8,475 bases of DNA, from assembly GCA_020629355.1 (NCBI GenBank), contig JAHDDM010000042.1, positions 1 through 8,475 of the forward strand. Direction: 5' to 3'. The notes under the pieces were generated by a model. The model did not search any database, was not told the DNA's origin, and saw only the letters and a program-made list of their open reading frames with translations. The position numbers and the translations under genes are program-made. Below, piece after piece: positions 1,325-8,475 of the stretch. How positions within the stretch are numbered: position 1 is the stretch's first letter; the number at the start of each line of letters is the position of its first letter. The DNA is from Rhodospirillaceae bacterium (GTDB taxonomy: Bacteria; Pseudomonadota; Alphaproteobacteria; JABSOH01).

Positions 1325-2635
1325 ATGGATGTGATGTTTTCAAAAATAATGAGTTTGGTCGGAATGGCCGTCTTTATCGGTATCTGTTTCGGGCTTTCGA
1401 GTGATCGCGGTGCAGTAAAACACCGTGTTATTTACTGGGGAATCGGTCTTCAGGCTATTTTCGCTACGCTCATTTTAGGCATTCCCATGATTGGCCTGCC
1501 TGGTATTCTACAACCTGTATTTGCAGGAGTCACTGACTTCTTCAATGCTCTACTCACCTTCACCCAAGCTGGAACGCAATTCCTATTCGGTTCGTTCGCC
1601 AGCGACAAATATGGCTTTGTCTTCGCCCTTTCTGCACTGCCCACAATCGTGTTCCTATCTGCTCTGCTGAGTGTTCTATATCATCTTGGAATTATGCAGA
1701 AAATCGTTAAGGGCTTTGCTTGGATCATGTACAAGACCATGCGGATTTCTGGTGCTGAATCTCTATCTGCTGCGGCAAACGTCTTTGTGGGTCAAACCGA
1801 AGCGCCTCTTCTGGTGCGCCCCTTTGTCCCAAACATGACCAATTCTGAACTTTTCTGCCTGATGGTGGGCGGCATGACCACCGTTGCTGGCGGCGTGATG
1901 GCGGTGTATGTTGGTATGCTGTCTGGTTTCATTCCCGATATTGCAGGACATCTTTTGACTGCCAGTGTGCTTTCCGCACCAGCTGCGATCATGATTGCGA
2001 AGATTATGATTCCAGAAACAGGAACCCCTGAAAGTGCTGGAGATGTTCCCCAAGAAAAAAGCGAAAAGATTGATTACAACTTCATCGAAGCCGCAGCACG
2101 CGGGGCAACCGAAGGGATGCATTTGGCGTTCAACGTTGCAGCAATGTTGCTGGCATTTATCGCGCTGATTTTCATGCTGGATTCGATTCTGACCTCAATA
2201 GGCGACTTGGTTGGCTTTGGCAGCTGGGGTGCAGACATTGTTGCAGATGCGCTGAAGCAAAATGGCGAGGCCAAATTGACACTCGCGGTTATTCTATCGT
2301 GGCTCTTTGCACCAGTGGCGTTTCTGCTGGGTGTGCCTTGGGCAGAAGCTGGTGCAGCTGGCGCGCTTCTTGGCGAGAAAATTGCCATCAATGAATTTGT
2401 CGCCTACCTGCATCTCGCGGAAATTGGCACGGGACTTTCAGAGCGTACCGTACTTATCCTGTCTTATGCACTGTGTGGCTTTGCAAACTTTGCCTCTATC
2501 GCTGTTCTGATCGGAGGCATTGGCGCAATTGCACCAAAGCGCCGTGGTGATCTGGCACGGATGGGCTTTAAGGCCATTGCTGGCGGCTCAATGGCGGCCT
2601 TTATGACCGCATGTATTGCAAATATCTTTATCTAA
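1325..2635 (+). CDS. Concentrative nucleoside transporter (CNT/NupC family)
   Basis: A 436-residue inner-membrane protein, the normal length for bacterial CNT (TC 2.A.41) members, which import nucleosides with sodium ions or protons. The family hallmarks are in order: GQTEAPLLVRP (156-166), where Gln157, Thr158 and Glu159 correspond to base-binding residues of the Vibrio transporter; the CNT signature GxKxxxNEFVAY (350-361), with Glu357 expected to contact ribose; and CGFANFASI (384-392), with Asn388 and Ser391, followed by GGIGAIAP. Several long hydrophobic segments fit the CNT fold, with a short hydrophilic loop at about 230-252. The start is supported by GAGGGA 7 bases upstream. It lies 83 bases after ridA and its 3' end overlaps the kinase gene by 25 bases, so co-expression is likely. 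No clear terminator or promoter is seen in the 83-base gap. Family is certain; nucleoside preference cannot be read from the sequence. Confidence 0.93.
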   Translation: MDVMFSKIMSLVGMAVFIGICFGLSSDRGAVKHRVIYWGIGLQAIFATLILGIPMIGLPGILQPVFAGVTDFFNALLTFTQAGTQFLFGSFASDKYGFVFALSALPTIVFLSALLSVLYHLGIMQKIVKGFAWIMYKTMRISGAESLSAAANVFVGQTEAPLLVRPFVPNMTNSELFCLMVGGMTTVAGGVMAVYVGMLSGFIPDIAGHLLTASVLSAPAAIMIAKIMIPETGTPESAGDVPQEKSEKIDYNFIEAAARGATEGMHLAFNVAAMLLAFIALIFMLDSILTSIGDLVGFGSWGADIVADALKQNGEAKLTLAVILSWLFAPVAFLLGVPWAEAGAAGALLGEKIAINEFVAYLHLAEIGTGLSERTVLILSYALCGFANFASIAVLIGGIGAIAPKRRGDLARMGFKAIAGGSMAAFMTACIANIFI

Positions 2636-3573
2636 AATTGCGCCATAAGAAACTCATTCAGCAGGTATTGCCTCTTTGGGGATTTTCCCTCGAAGCAGAG
2701 GTAGACCTGCTGAATATTTCTGAAAACACCACCTTCAAGATTACACACCCTGAGGGACAGCACTATATCTTGCGTCTATACCGCACGGGACATCATTCCA
2801 AGGCCGCGATTGCTTCAGAACTGGCGTGGATGCAAGCACTGAACAATGATCACATATTGCCGACACCGAAGGTCATTGCTGGCATCAATGGTGCAGAGAT
2901 TCAACAATATGACGGCTCGTTTCTGGTGCTGTTTGAATTTCTTTCTGGTGATGAGCCGCAAATGGCGGATGATTTACGCCAGCCGTTTCAGCAGCTAGGC
3001 AAGCTTGCCGCGCGTACTCATCTGCATAGTCAAAACTGGCAAAGACCCAAAAATTTTACGCGCCCAACATGGGATGAAACCGCCGTTTTTGAGCCTGATC
3101 CGCTTTGGGGGCATTGGCGTACAGGGCCTAATGTCCAGCCCGAACATTGCCGTATTCTGGAAGCAGCACAGACACAGATACAAAAACGCCTGGCGCATTA
3201 TGGTAAAGCTCCAGAACGTTTTGGTTTGATCCATGCCGATATGCGGCTGGCAAATTTACTGGTGAATCAGGACACCACCCATGTTATCGACTTTGACGAT
3301 TGCGGTTTCAGCTGGTGGATGTATGACTTTGCCGCCGCCATTAGCTTCTTTGAGGATCATCCGCAAATTCCTGCCCTGAAACAGGCGTGGCTCTCAGGCT
3401 ATCAGACTATTCGGTCTTTAGAGCCAGAGGACATTGCCGAAATGGATACTTTGATTGTCTTGCGCCGAATGCATCTGCTGGGCTGGCTAGGCACTCATCA
3501 GGACACCGAAATATATACTGAACTCGCGCCACATTTTGCAGAAGGCACCGCAAAATTGGCGCAGGTTATATAG
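2611..3573 (+). CDS. APH-fold small-molecule kinase (COG2334 phosphotransferase)
   Basis: A 320-residue soluble protein of the aminoglycoside phosphotransferase/choline kinase fold, in the branch containing SrkA/YihE, type II homoserine kinases and hydroxylysine kinase. The N-lobe nucleotide-binding strands are around 39-75 (HYILRLYR, then Glu70 in the helix). The catalytic loop is HADMRLAN (208-215: His208, Asp210 as base, Asn215), and the metal-binding IDFDDCGF follows with Asp227. All catalytic residues look intact. The ATG at 2611 lies inside the transporter gene (25-base overlap) and lacks a strong Shine-Dalgarno sequence, so translation is probably coupled; TTG 2638 is an alternative start. 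The stop codon (3571-3573) lies inside the terminal TATAG of the downstream repeat. Next to a CNT importer, phosphorylation of the imported solute is a reasonable inference, but a homoserine or hydroxyamino-acid substrate cannot be excluded. Confidence 0.85.
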   Translation: MYCKYLYLKLRHKKLIQQVLPLWGFSLEAEVDLLNISENTTFKITHPEGQHYILRLYRTGHHSKAAIASELAWMQALNNDHILPTPKVIAGINGAEIQQYDGSFLVLFEFLSGDEPQMADDLRQPFQQLGKLAARTHLHSQNWQRPKNFTRPTWDETAVFEPDPLWGHWRTGPNVQPEHCRILEAAQTQIQKRLAHYGKAPERFGLIHADMRLANLLVNQDTTHVIDFDDCGFSWWMYDFAAAISFFEDHPQIPALKQAWLSGYQTIRSLEPEDIAEMDTLIVLRRMHLLGWLGTHQDTEIYTELAPHFAEGTAKLAQVI

Positions 3574-3758
3574 CCAGTCTCATATAAATTGGATACTTCC
3601 ATTTACCTAAGATTTTGATGCAGATAGGGGTAAAGGGCGAAATTGAGTACCGGATAATATCTTGATATATTTGAGGAACGGAGATGAGCGATTTGCCACT
3701 AGATGCGCAAAAGATAGGTAAATGGAGGTGTCCAATTGATTATGTGAGACTGGCTATA
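3569..3758. repeat. Outer palindrome of the left repeat, interrupted
   Basis: The left half (3569-3590) begins TATAGCCAGTCTCATATAA and the right half (3738-3758) ends GTGAGACTGGCTATA; they are near-perfect reverse complements. Removing the 143-bp insertion and one AATT duplication leaves exactly 43 bp, the same length as the intact palindromes at 3879-3921 and 8324-8366. Confidence 0.8.
3591..3733. mobile_element. 143-bp MITE-like insertion with inverted ends and AATT duplication
   Basis: The ends are imperfect inverted repeats of about 26-27 bp: GGATACTTCCATTTACCTA on the left and, read inward from the right, GGACACCTCCATTTACCTA, each continuing to a TTTTG. AATT is present directly on both sides (3587-3590 and 3734-3737), as expected for a 4-bp target duplication, although AATT is itself palindromic. 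The core contains GAGGA six bases before an ATG at 3684, which may be the translation start of a deleted transposase whose reading frame then runs into the right end. This suggests an internally deleted insertion sequence. The parent family is not identified; 4-bp duplications occur in several IS families. Confidence 0.7.
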
Positions 3759-3878
3759 GGAGCGCGACCGCGCGACCAGCGCGCATGCGCTGCCCCCGCG
3801 GAGCAGTTTTGTTGCGATGGTCGGCGGTAGAACCGCCGACAAGGCCGTAAGGCCGATGGGCGTGAGCGATGAAAGAGC
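3759..3878. repeat. GC-rich, hairpin-rich linker of the left repeat
   Basis: The linker contains a perfect tandem GCGCGACC (3762-3769 and 3770-3777), a 6-bp stem with 4-base loop (3777-3792), CCCCCGCGGAG, an 8-bp stem with 5-base loop (GTCGGCGG...CCGCCGAC, 3820-3840), GGCC-GTAA-GGCC (3843-3854) and then GGGCGTGAGCGATGAAAGAG. The right copy shares the flanking blocks but lacks the 8-bp stem and about 36 bases around it. Such dense stems suggest a structured DNA or RNA element; no known RNA family is recognised. Confidence 0.7.
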
Positions 3879-3921
3879 TATAGCCTATCTCATATGATCA
3901 AATTATATGAGATAGGCTATA
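3879..3921. repeat. 43-bp palindrome at the 3' end of matB
   Basis: TATAGCCTATCTCATAT pairs with ATATGAGATAGGCTATA around a short AT-rich centre. With GAGC before it and GCTC after it, the perfect arms reach 21 bp (3875-3925). In matB mRNA it would fold into a strong hairpin directly at the stop codon, followed by CUCUUUC, so it could act as a weak terminator or 3' stabiliser in addition to being a repeat. Confidence 0.85.
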
Positions 3922-5401
3922 GCTCAATAAACATATCCTGATATTCCTGTCGTAGCAGATTTTTTTGCACTTTACCCATGCTGTTGCGTGGCAATGACGC
4001 GACAGTCAGCAGTGTGCGCGGATGTTTGTACCGTGCGAGGCTCTTGTTTAGAGTTGCAGTTATTGCTTCAAGATCAATGGTTTCGTTTGGCTGTGCAACC
4101 AATACTGCAATGGCGGCCTCACCCAAGTCTGGATGCGGTATGCCAATAACCGCACTTTCGGCAACATTGGGTTGGTCATCAAGGACAGTTTCTATTTCTT
4201 TCGGGTAAATATTATAACCACCAGAGATAATCAGGTCTTTGTTGCGTCCAACAATGTGAAGATAGCCACGCTCATCAATCAAGCCCAAGTCTCCAGTGAT
4301 AAAGAAACCATCGGCGCAAAATTCTTCGGCGGTTTTCTCGGGCATCTGCCAATAGCCTTGAAAGACATTATCGCCGCGTACCTCGATAGAACCAATTTCG
4401 CCATTCGGTAAAGACGCGTGGGTTTCAGGATCAGCAACCCGTATCTCAATATCAGGCAGCGGGAAACCCACCGTACCCGCGCGGCGTTCACCGTCATAAG
4501 GATTCGAGGTATTCATGCTGGTTTCCGTCATGCCATAGCGTTCCAGAATCCTGTGTCCCGTGCGCTGTTCAAATTCGGTGTGGGTCTGCGACAATAGCGG
4601 CGCACTGCCAGAGATAAACAACCGAATATGCTGGCAGAGCTCTTTGCTGAAACGCGAATCAGCCAGTAGTCGCGTGTAGAAAGTCGGCACGCCCATCATG
4701 CAGGTGGCTTCGGGTATTCCGATATTGATTAGGGTGTCGATATCGAACTTAGGCATGAAAATCATGCTCCCACCCGCCAGCAACATAACATTACACGCCA
4801 CGAATAGGCCGTGAGTGTGAAAAATCGGCAGGGCATGAATCAAGACATCCTGTTCTGTGAATTGCCAATATTTCACCAGAGCCTGAGCATTGGAAAGTAA
4901 GTTTTTTTGGCTTAACATTACGCCTTTCGCACGGCCTGTCGTGCCAGAGGTATATAATAAAGCCGCCAGATCATCTTCAGACCGCGCCACCGTTTCAAAG
5001 GATATAGGATAGTCATTGCTGGCTTGAATGAGGCTTTCTAGGGTTTCGCAACGGCAATCGTGCTGAGATTCATGATCGGTGATCAGCAATTTTGCGCCGC
5101 TATCCGCGATAAAATAGCTAAGTTCATCGGATGTATAGGCGGTATTCAACGGTAAGAATACCAGCCCCGCCTGTACACAAGCCGCGTATAAAGCCAGAGC
5201 TTCTGGCGACTTCGTCACCTGAGCTGCAACACGGTCTCCAGCCACAAGGCCAATTTCGCAAAAGTAGTGTGCAAACTGTGCAGAAAGCTCAAGAAAGTCC
5301 TTGTGGCTCAAGCTGTTGCCATCAGGAAGATGCAGAAAAGGCGTGCACTGATCAATATGCGGTGCAAACAGGGCATCATATAAAGGATTAGAGAATGTCA
5401 T
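3917..5401 (-). CDS. matB: Malonyl-CoA synthetase (MatB), ANL superfamily
   Basis: A 494-residue cytoplasmic adenylate-forming ligase that should convert malonate, ATP and CoA to malonyl-CoA, AMP and pyrophosphate. The P-loop is YTSGTTGRAKG (150-160), the A5 motif ERYGMTET (287-294), the ATP ribose-binding ITGDLG (368-373), the hinge and A8 region GRNKDLIISGGYNIYP (385-400), and the catalytic Lys477 in NSMGK. MatB-specific features are Arg244 in VPTFYTRLL and Arg288 in ERYGMTET, matching arginines that bind the free carboxylate of malonate in characterised MatB proteins, plus the NTSNPYDGERRAGTVGFPLP segment (297-316). The start codon overlaps the dctM-type gene's stop by 4 bases (ATGA), so translation is coupled. 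The TAG stop is formed by the terminal TATAG of the adjacent palindrome, yet the length is close to normal (about 500). Substrate methylmalonate is also possible, as some MatBs accept it. Confidence 0.9.
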   Translation of the reverse strand: MTFSNPLYDALFAPHIDQCTPFLHLPDGNSLSHKDFLELSAQFAHYFCEIGLVAGDRVAAQVTKSPEALALYAACVQAGLVFLPLNTAYTSDELSYFIADSGAKLLITDHESQHDCRCETLESLIQASNDYPISFETVARSEDDLAALLYTSGTTGRAKGVMLSQKNLLSNAQALVKYWQFTEQDVLIHALPIFHTHGLFVACNVMLLAGGSMIFMPKFDIDTLINIGIPEATCMMGVPTFYTRLLADSRFSKELCQHIRLFISGSAPLLSQTHTEFEQRTGHRILERYGMTETSMNTSNPYDGERRAGTVGFPLPDIEIRVADPETHASLPNGEIGSIEVRGDNVFQGYWQMPEKTAEEFCADGFFITGDLGLIDERGYLHIVGRNKDLIISGGYNIYPKEIETVLDDQPNVAESAVIGIPHPDLGEAAIAVLVAQPNETIDLEAITATLNKSLARYKHPRTLLTVASLPRNSMGKVQKNLLRQEYQDMFIEL

Positions 5402-7268: not shown

Positions 7269-8248
7269 TATTGAACAGCGAGAGCCATATCCAGAAGTTC
7301 TTTGCCGCCTTCGACCTCTTCGATGAACTTGGCATAGGAGGTCTCTTGTGCAATCGCGCGCCAAGCATCAAAATCTGCTTGGCTCATATGGGCAATCTCG
7401 ACACCCGCATCCTTGAAGACCTTGGCAGAATTGGCATCCTGCTTTTTGGCTTCTGCCAAATAGTATGCCTCAGCTTTTTTGCTGGCGGCAAGCAGCGCCT
7501 TTTGTTGTGCTGCATTCAGACCTTCAAAGGTGGACTTGTTCATCAATAACGGCTGATACATAAACCACAGGGCGTATTTTCCTGCTGGTGTATAGCACTT
7601 GACCTGTTCATAAATCCGATAGGACACAAAGGACGAAGACGAGGTATTCGCCGCGTTCAAAACACCAGTCTGCATGGCATTATAAATCTCCGAAGAGGCC
7701 ATCGAAGCAATGGACGCCCCTGCCCCTGCAAGCATTTGCTCGAAGGCTTTACCAGCAGCACGAGTTTGTAGCCCTTTCACATCCGAAGGTTTCGTAATAC
7801 ATTTGTCTTTGCCAACAAAGCCACCCGCCAGATAACCACGCACCAAGGTGATTACATCATCTTCGGCCATTTTGGCTTCTATTTCTTGCATAAACGGCGA
7901 ATAGTTCAGCCGTGCAGCATGATCGTGATTTTTGACCAGTCCTGGCATGAGGGTCAAGTTGTAAGAAGGCTGTTGCCCACCAGCATAACTTAGAGGGAAT
8001 ACAGTCATGTCCAACAGACCGCGCGAAAGCGGCTTGTATTGCTCGCGTGGTTTGAACAGGGACTTTGAGCCGAAAATTTTAATTTCCAGATCGACATTCG
8101 CCGCCGCGACTTCGTTTGCAACAATTTCGGCAACCTTGTGGCGGACATCCGTATTTGCCCACTGATGCGACAGCCTGAGTTCCTTAGCCTGTGCCTGAGT
8201 GCTCAAAGCCAGCAATAGAGATGCGGCGGTAATAAGTAAGCGTTTCAT
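7268..8248 (-). CDS. matP: TRAP transporter periplasmic solute-binding protein (DctP type)
   Basis: A 326-residue secreted protein and first gene of the malonate operon. The N-terminus MKRLLITAASLLLALSTQAQA is a signal peptide with probable cleavage after Ala21, leaving KELRLSHQW, a typical DctP first strand. The carboxylate-binding arginine of the family is expected at Arg163 in LQTRAAGKAF, and the second conserved block is EIYNAMQTGVLNAANTS (187-203). The mature protein has two cysteines, Cys150 and Cys218, that could form a disulfide. ATG 8248 is chosen because GGGAG ends about 7 bases upstream and the signal peptide starts immediately; an in-frame ATG at 8299 would put 17 hydrophilic residues before it. 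Linkage with matQ, matM and matB makes malonate the leading ligand, although DctP proteins bind many carboxylates. Confidence 0.9.
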   Translation of the reverse strand: MKRLLITAASLLLALSTQAQAKELRLSHQWANTDVRHKVAEIVANEVAAANVDLEIKIFGSKSLFKPREQYKPLSRGLLDMTVFPLSYAGGQQPSYNLTLMPGLVKNHDHAARLNYSPFMQEIEAKMAEDDVITLVRGYLAGGFVGKDKCITKPSDVKGLQTRAAGKAFEQMLAGAGASIASMASSEIYNAMQTGVLNAANTSSSSFVSYRIYEQVKCYTPAGKYALWFMYQPLLMNKSTFEGLNAAQQKALLAASKKAEAYYLAEAKKQDANSAKVFKDAGVEIAHMSQADFDAWRAIAQETSYAKFIEEVEGGKELLDMALAVQ

Positions 8249-8323
8249 AGTTTCTCTCCCAAAATAATAAGATGCATGATGCGGATATGATATTGGCACT
8301 ATCTGTTTCCAAAATCAACGTTC
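8249..8323 (-). promoter_or_regulatory. Leader and likely promoter region of the matPQMB operon
   Basis: The 75 bases between the right-hand repeat and matP must hold the operon promoter unless transcription begins inside or beyond the repeat. On the minus strand there is TTGATT (8318-8313) and, further down, TATCAT (8292-8287), a 5-of-6 match to a -10 box, but the spacing between them is 20 bases and therefore poor. AATATC (8294-8289) has an 18-base spacing but a weaker match. A strong Shine-Dalgarno GGGAG precedes matP. No clear GntR-type operator is seen. Confidence 0.25.
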
Positions 8324-8366
8324 TATAGCCTATCTCGTACAATCAATTTATATGAGACTGGCTATA
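8324..8366. repeat. 43-bp palindrome upstream of matP
   Basis: TATAGCCTATCTCGTACAA pairs imperfectly with TATATGAGACTGGCTATA. One arm carries TA and the other the complement of AG after TATAGCC, so it is a hybrid of the two arm types seen in the left copy. The central TCAATT corresponds to the AATTGA site that was split by the insertion at 3591-3733. Confidence 0.85.
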
Positions 8367-8475
8367 TCTCTTTATCGCTCACGCCTGTCGGCCTTACGGC
8401 CTAGGCTCCGCGGGGGCGCCACATACGTGGCGGTCGCGCAGTCGCGCTCCCATAGCCAGTCTCATACAATCAATT
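8324..8475. repeat. Composite palindromic repeat, right copy, inverted and cut by window edge
   Basis: The order is an intact 43-bp palindrome (8324-8366), an 84-base GC-rich linker (8367-8450) and the first 25 bases of a second palindrome (8451-8475, CATAGCCAGTCTCATACAAT and onward). Compared with the reverse complement of 3921-3569 it shares the palindrome ends, the CTCTTT/ATCGCTCACGCC block, GGCC-TTAC-GGCC (8390-8401), CTCCGCGGGGG, GTCGCGC-GTCGCGCTCC and the outer palindrome start. It lies just upstream of the matP leader. The rest lies beyond the window. Confidence 0.85.

What the first reader, a model, noticed from the sequence alone, without database searches (positions are those of the whole stretch)
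3777..3792. Compensatory stem changes in a conserved hairpin of the dispersed repeat
In equivalent positions between identical flanks (CTCCGCGGGGG on one side, GTCGCGC on the other, same reading direction), the left copy has CAGCGC-ATGC-GCGCTG and the right copy (8417-8432) has CGCCAC-ATAC-GTGGCG. Three of the six base pairs differ, and each change is matched by a change in the opposite arm, so the 6-bp stem and 4-base loop are kept while the sequence is not. This pattern is expected if the folded form, as RNA or single-stranded DNA, matters, and it points to a structured mobile element rather than junk.
Basis: partly seen in the sequence, partly recalled or inferred. Interest (0 to 1): 0.72.

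Follow-up and report, generated by a model that had tools for sequence, protein, structure and literature searches.

The report
Mobile three-hairpin element with co-varying stems
The two hairpins belong to a short DNA repeat found in many alphaproteobacteria, whose copies keep their folds but not their stem sequences and which, in a related genus, is cleanly absent from the same spots in sister genomes, so it is a mobile element that is likely moved by a transposase borrowed from elsewhere.

Summary
Fetched host stretches hold 20 intact copies of the hairpin; 19 have all six pairs (arms shuffled: mean 4.7, maximum 15). It is the middle of three stem-loops in an ~80-base core. In 106 matches from 20 other genomes and one viral contig, 22 of 24 pairs change on both sides (covariation 0.429; shuffled 0.117; slid at most 0.049), while a few internal-loop bases are nearly fixed.

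In the host the core usually lies between TA-ended palindromes. In a distant genus (G288) the whole 149-base unit is missing at orthologous sites, leaving a single TA: base-exact in 6 of 28 aligned empty sites, at 3 of 10 loci. Most units whose flanks could be classified lie at gene 3' ends; in the window both convergent genes end on TAG inside the outer palindromes.

G.T wobbles and their mirror A.C are about equally rare (22 and 19 events), favouring DNA-level over one-strand RNA-level maintenance. An IS630-type transposase is a likely, unproven mover.

Nearest known kinds are TA-target MITEs (RUP, CIR) and REPs; no Rfam match to the core. Verdict: real; an apparently undescribed variant of a known kind.

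The parts
3569..3587 (.). left arm of outer palindrome P1 (TATAGCCAGTCTCATATAA); its TAG at 3571-3573 is the stop codon of the APH-type gene
   Evidence: (pair I11, 95% complementary to 3740-3758); gene 2611-3573 +
3588..3739 (.). unrelated ~150-bp repeat A nested between the arms of P1
   Evidence: (pair I5)
3740..3758 (.). right arm of P1 (TTATGTGAGACTGGCTATA)
3759..3873 (-). left core (5' end CGCTCACGCC at the high-coordinate end)
   Evidence: covariance-model match, 63.0 bits
3777..3792 (-). H3, the reported hairpin, left copy
3804..3842 (-). extra 39-base hairpin module inside the left core; also seen in C91 and in variant copies C95 and C119
3879..3921 (.). outer palindrome P2 (TATAGCC...GGCTATA); the TAG read at 3919-3917 is the stop codon of the AMP-binding gene
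   Evidence: gene 3917-5401 -
8324..8366 (.). palindrome P3, 3 mismatches between its arms
8371..8450 (+). right core, H1/H2, H3 and H4
   Evidence: 105.3 bits; fold
8417..8432 (+). H3, the reported hairpin, right copy
8452..8475 (.). first part of palindrome P4, cut by the end of the contig

Best explanation
The hairpin is one of three stem-loops in an ~80-base core that sits between two TA-ended palindromes in a miniature transposable element, which is likely moved as DNA by an IS630-type transposase acting in trans and whose stems likely co-vary because the hairpins are recognised or re-copied as DNA. Shown: the core and its covarying structure in the host and in 20 other genomes and a viral contig; the position of most classifiable copies at gene 3' ends; and, in the G288 genus, presence or absence of the complete 149-base unit at orthologous sites with one TA at the empty site. 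Inferred: that the window's units move the same way (ends TATAGC...GCTATA instead of TAGAGC...GCTCTA); that the palindromes are the transposase-binding ends; that an IS630-type enzyme is the mover. Because the ends start with G (or TAG) after the TA, an insertion into the TA of a stop codon would rebuild a stop codon, so copies landing there likely do little harm and persist.
For: Covariation: 22 of 24 pairs with changes on both sides, score 0.429, 0 of 500 shuffles reach it, slid at most 0.049. Unit 149 bp counting both TAs at 14 of the 16 (of 20) G288 loci where both ends were recognised. Empty site GACGTTTAGGTCTCC in G389 for TTTA[unit]TAGG; joined flanks of 14 more loci matched across the junction at 9; of 28 aligned empty sites 6 are base-exact, at 3 of 10 loci. 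Gene 3' ends on 52 of 60 classified 5' flanks and 45 of 59 classified 3' flanks. G.T and A.C about equally rare. IS630-type elements in the same genus with TA-bounded ends starting GAGC at 3 of 18 matches, one lying directly against a unit. In the window, removing the left unit and one TA in a script leaves the AMP-binding protein at 494 residues with a TAA stop and lengthens the APH protein by two.
Against: No IS630 match in G288 or in the 65%-complete host; the IS630 ends agree with the unit's ends in only the first few bases and a TCC/TCG further in. 22 of 28 empty sites have drifted edges. No empty site for the window itself. G219 and G308 hold tandem cores without TA palindromes, which this mover does not explain. 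Unpaired columns are not more conserved than paired ones on average (1.06 and 0.91 bits). Stop-codon location could be selection alone. Some palindromes seem to occur alone, so they may move without the core.
Confidence: 0.58

Rival explanations
1. RNA-level element: the core is transcribed as part of 3' untranslated regions and selected as a folded RNA, for instance against exonucleases; mobility only spreads it.
For: Copies lie at gene 3' ends. In codirectional settings the core's strand matches the gene strand in 9 of 11 loci (p 0.065). The right unit folds far better than shuffles (z -5.5).
Against: G.T is not clearly commoner than A.C (31 and 19 cells, p 0.12; 22 and 19 events, p 0.76), whereas one-strand RNA selection should give a clear G.T excess. 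The core alone folds only z about -2 on either strand. No Rfam match to it. No expression data here.
Confidence: 0.17
2. Mutational palindrome correction: template switching during replication copies one arm onto the other, so stems co-vary without any use of the fold.
For: Compensated Watson-Crick changes greatly outnumber wobble intermediates (399 cells changed on both sides; 31 G.T and 19 A.C). The flanking palindromes are also nearly perfect while differing in sequence.
Against: The same fold is kept in 20 genomes with near-invariant letters at set places (T9, C10, C12, T79, C82, G90, T144), which a copying process alone does not predict. In one orthologous pair a stem base changed with no matching change (L226/L237).
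Confidence: 0.12
3. REP-like single-strand mobility: an HUH (RAYT-type) transposase recognises the hairpins in single-stranded DNA, and the TA palindromes are separate passengers.
For: Strand-symmetric hairpins with fixed unpaired letters; tandem and inverted groups of cores; cores without TA palindromes.
Against: The REP foot is missing: GTAG at 1 and CGTC at 2 of 135 x 2 core edges. In the G288 genus the palindromes leave together with the core and the target is TA. RAYT genes were not searched.
Confidence: 0.08
4. Two-way transcription terminators between convergent genes, spread as useful cassettes.
For: 33 of 75 single-orientation loci lie between two gene 3' ends; T-rich bases precede the core.
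Against: No terminator-like site in either window region.
Confidence: 0.05

Closest known systems
CIR, CcrM-associated intergenic repeats of Caulobacter and Brucella (from the review PMC2229807: sections 4 and 7 and passages read; the original paper is not held)
   Same: Alphaproteobacterial, intergenic, TA at the ends, two stem-loop arms joined by a linker, incomplete MITE features.
   Different: CIRs are ~110 bp and marked by GANTC sites; GANTC is in only 2 of 135 cores and in few flanks. Here the linker is itself a conserved three-hairpin core.
RUP of pneumococcus, mobilised by IS630-Spn1 (same review, passages)
   Same: Short non-coding unit with a TA target and a proposed IS630-type mover in trans.
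   Different: RUP is 107 bp with ends closely alike to its IS; here the ends agree only in part and a covarying core is kept across genera.
GTAG and CGTC REPs (PMC3733652: abstract, section 15 and passages read)
   Same: Dispersed palindromes next to gene 3' ends, often between convergent genes; GTAG ends often supply a TAG stop codon; some REP dimers lie inside longer palindromes.
   Different: REPs are single 20-40 bp hairpins with a GTAG or CGTC foot; here three stem-loops, no such foot, and a 149-bp unit where measured.

Membership tests
TA-target MITE (RUP/IS630 type) | short unit without a coding frame of its own | tested here: met
   149 bp counting both TAs at 14 of 16 G288 loci
TA-target MITE (RUP/IS630 type) | terminal inverted repeats | tested here: met
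   TA-GAGCG...CGCTC-TA in G288 with some copies altered; TATAGC...GCTATA in the host
TA-target MITE (RUP/IS630 type) | TA target duplication shown by empty sites | tested here: met
   G288 genus only: 6 of 28 aligned sites base-exact, 3 of 10 loci; not testable for the host
TA-target MITE (RUP/IS630 type) | transposase element with matching ends | tested here: inconclusive
   GAGC ends at 3 of 18 IS630 matches in congeners; none in G288 or the host
CIR | GANTC motif in the repeat | tested here: not met
   2 of 135 cores
CIR | sequence likeness to CIR1-4 | not testable with these tools
   original paper not held
GTAG/CGTC REP | GTAG or CGTC foot at the hairpin edge | tested here: not met
   GTAG at 0 of 135 5' and 1 of 135 3' edges; CGTC at 1 and 1
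GTAG REP | associated RAYT transposase gene | not tested
   no search made
Any Rfam 15 family | covariance-model match to the core at the gathering score | tested here: not met
   window and 20 other loci; the one gathering-level hit is a tRNA beside a core
Intrinsic terminator | G+C-rich hairpin followed by a T run | tested here: not met
   0 sites in 3400-4100 and 8100-8475

The most novel reading that the evidence does not exclude
The core is an old folded DNA domain that has changed transposon ends again and again: carried between different TA-type palindromic ends, or copied in tandem without them, it is recognised by its hairpins and fixed internal loop while its stem sequences run free, and it delivers ready-made stop codons to gene ends across alphaproteobacteria.
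Probability: 0.25. Interest if true: 0.75.

Novelty: new variant of a known kind. Interest (0 to 1): 0.55.

Why it matters
It is a clean natural case of a dispersed DNA repeat that keeps its fold but not its sequence, with many paralogues per genome and empty sites for comparison. That makes it testable whether bacterial repeats co-vary through RNA function, recognition of DNA hairpins, or template switching. The core also gives a usable profile for annotating gene-end repeats in alphaproteobacteria, which no Rfam family matched here.

Tried and rejected
Rfam: no match to the core. Annotated phages and plasmids by DNA: no match with two queries. The congener G001 has no core match and its best match to the AMP-binding protein is 30% identical, so no empty site for the window was found. 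One of two viral contigs (L131) looks like a chance match inside a long open frame, without CGCTCACG beside it.

Literature. led to PMC4666352 (abstract and passages read), where the match is a primer and unrelated. PMC2573895 (passages read) names RIME and other rhizobial repeats without their sequences. None of the titles and abstracts shown describes this element; subscription papers are mostly not held, and RIME and CIR sequences were not compared.

A strict palindrome scan of the readable part of 20 host contigs found no TATAGC palindrome; it missed at least one imperfect copy. Gene ends rest on a crude frame and GC3 caller, not on annotation; a simpler caller left about half the flanks unclassified. 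Four of 24 pairs (the weak ones) were left out of the wobble count. 28 of the junction-spanning matches were aligned; others, among them L433 and places without a locus, were not.

Full report
What was checked. The window is a whole contig of an incomplete genome (1.25 Mb, 187 contigs, 65% complete). The exact flanked pattern occurs 16 times there and 0 times read backwards. Over the fetched stretches 20 copies hold a full 16-base hairpin with six different left arms; 19 are fully paired and one has a C.A at the base. Shuffling right arms among copies gave a mean of 4.7 and never more than 15 of 20. Copies with a cut, replaced or lost hairpin are outside this count.

What the hairpin belongs to. 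It is the middle stem-loop (H3) of an ~80-base core: CGCTCACG opens a stem with an internal loop (H1/H2), then CTCCGCGGGG, H3, and a small hairpin H4. A covariance model from 12 host copies, two copies on one viral contig and one copy of a distant genome matched 22 of 385 genomes of the class, the host included, at E<=1e-3, and 7 of 299 genomes of the phylum, namely the host and six of the same class. Twenty positive genomes searched more deeply gave 1 to 38 matches each at E<=0.01. A looser pattern in named genomes gave 118 stretches; of the 80 listed titles 78 carry alphaproteobacterial names, among them Asticcacaulis, Henriciella, Rhodobium, Mesorhizobium and Hyphomicrobium (the class of some names is recalled).

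Structure. In 106 matches from 20 genomes and the viral contig, 91.2% of cells form standard pairs, 22 of 24 pairs change on both sides, and the covariation score is 0.429 against a shuffled mean of 0.117 (0 of 500 reach it) and at most 0.049 with partners slid. The alignment was fitted to the model, which leans towards it; the small starting alignment gave 0.184 against 0.112, slid at most 0.077. Ten columns at the internal loop and junctions (T9, C10, C12, G13, C78, T79, C82, G87, G90, T144; some of them paired) are 0.98-1.00 conserved, yet unpaired columns as a whole are not more conserved than paired ones (mean 1.06 and 0.91 bits).

DNA or RNA. If one strand were kept as RNA, G.T should be clearly commoner than A.C, which is G.T on the other strand. 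Over 20 of the 24 pairs there are 1901 Watson-Crick cells, 31 G.T, 19 A.C and 59 others; counted once per genome, pair and type, 22 G.T, 19 A.C and 41 others (p 0.12 for cells, 0.76 for events). This favours a DNA-level cause without excluding RNA. The right unit folds far better than shuffles (z -5.5), with its outer arms paired; the core alone gives z about -2 on either strand. Orthologous copies in G219 and G308 (L226/L237) differ by one stem base with no matching change, so not every copy is held to its fold.

The whole unit. In the host, cores lie mostly between palindromes with TATAGC...GCTATA ends, which also vary in sequence with 0 to 3 mismatches between arms. Eight host palindrome loci have no core match; four of them lie so near a contig end that a core beyond it cannot be excluded. 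In G288 the unit is TA-GAGCG...palindrome-core-palindrome...CGCTC-TA; both ends were recognised at 16 of 20 loci, 149 bp apart at 14 of these. G219 and G308 have tandem cores without such palindromes, and other genomes have mixed forms.

Mobility. One G288 locus (L198) has its flanks adjacent in congener G389, where the site reads GACGTTTAGGTCTCC against TTTA[unit]TAGG. Joined flanks of 14 more loci were searched in six congeners; 9 of 14 gave a match across the junction. Of 28 aligned empty sites, 6 are base-exact on both sides, at 3 of 10 loci, each with a single TA; the other 22 have drifted edges of up to 55 bases. At L193 the four aligned empty sites read CGCTATACTC, so the target is TA; the left copy in G288 now reads TG.

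Gene ends. With a crude frame caller on 80 loci (75 in one orientation; 5 inverted pairs left out), 52 of 60 classified 5' flanks and 45 of 59 classified 3' flanks are gene 3' ends. Of the 52, 41 show a stop codon in the flank (21 TAG, 12 TGA, 8 TAA) and 11 run open to the core's edge. Distances are 0-5 nt in 19 and 33-35 nt in 18 of the 52, the latter fitting a 5' palindrome. In the L198 empty site the TA lies in the stop codons of both convergent frames (read from the sequence). In the window the APH-type gene stops on TAG at 3571-3573 and the AMP-binding gene on TAG at 3919-3917, both inside the outer palindromes. Removing the unit and one TA in a script leaves the AMP-binding protein at 494 residues with a TAA stop and lengthens the APH protein by two residues; that is a prediction. 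Stop codons supplied by repeat ends are already reported for GTAG REPs (PMC3733652, section 15).

Mover. TA targets suggest an IS630-type enzyme, as proposed for RUP (PMC2229807, passages). Of 18 IS630-type matches in 8 of 11 genomes, three loci in the G288 genus have TA-bounded inverted ends starting GAGC (14 of 18 bases alike between their two ends), and one of these elements lies directly against a unit. G288 itself and the host have no IS630 match. The mover is likely, not shown.

Place among known kinds. It works like a TA-target MITE and resembles CIRs in layout. The CIR mark GANTC is absent from 133 of 135 cores, the REP foot is essentially absent, and no Rfam family matches the core. 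I call it a new variant of a known kind. The statement that it seems undescribed rests in an open-access library only.

Noticed in passing
window 3588-3739: A separate ~150-bp inverted-repeat element (ends TGGATACTTCCATTTACCT) sits in the loop of palindrome P1; one search lists some 30 further host matches to it.
   Followed up: partly
L080, L086 (host contigs C33, C153): H3 is replaced by, or carries inside it, a different hairpin (CCCTGTCGCGGTAGAACCGCTCC...), so the core seems modular.
   Followed up: no
L132 (IMG/VR contig), 796-881 and 1541-1626: Two near-identical cores directly after the stop codons of two frames on a viral contig.
   Followed up: partly
L144, L264: Cores lie close behind what look like tRNA 3' ends; the one in L264 is an Rfam tRNA hit.
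   Followed up: no
L444 (G387), about 1399-2456: An IS630-type element of 1,054 bp with GAGC ends lies directly at the TA end of a unit.
   Followed up: yes
L099, L100, L101, L093 (host contigs C43, C178, C111, C33): TATAGC palindromes without a core match nearby, possibly able to move alone.
   Followed up: partly
L210, L220, L223, L261: Pairs of cores in opposite orientation, 53 to 78 bases apart.
   Followed up: no
window 8475 and other host contig ends: Several host contigs end inside these palindromes or cores, so the repeat probably breaks the assembly and copy numbers are lower bounds.
   Followed up: no
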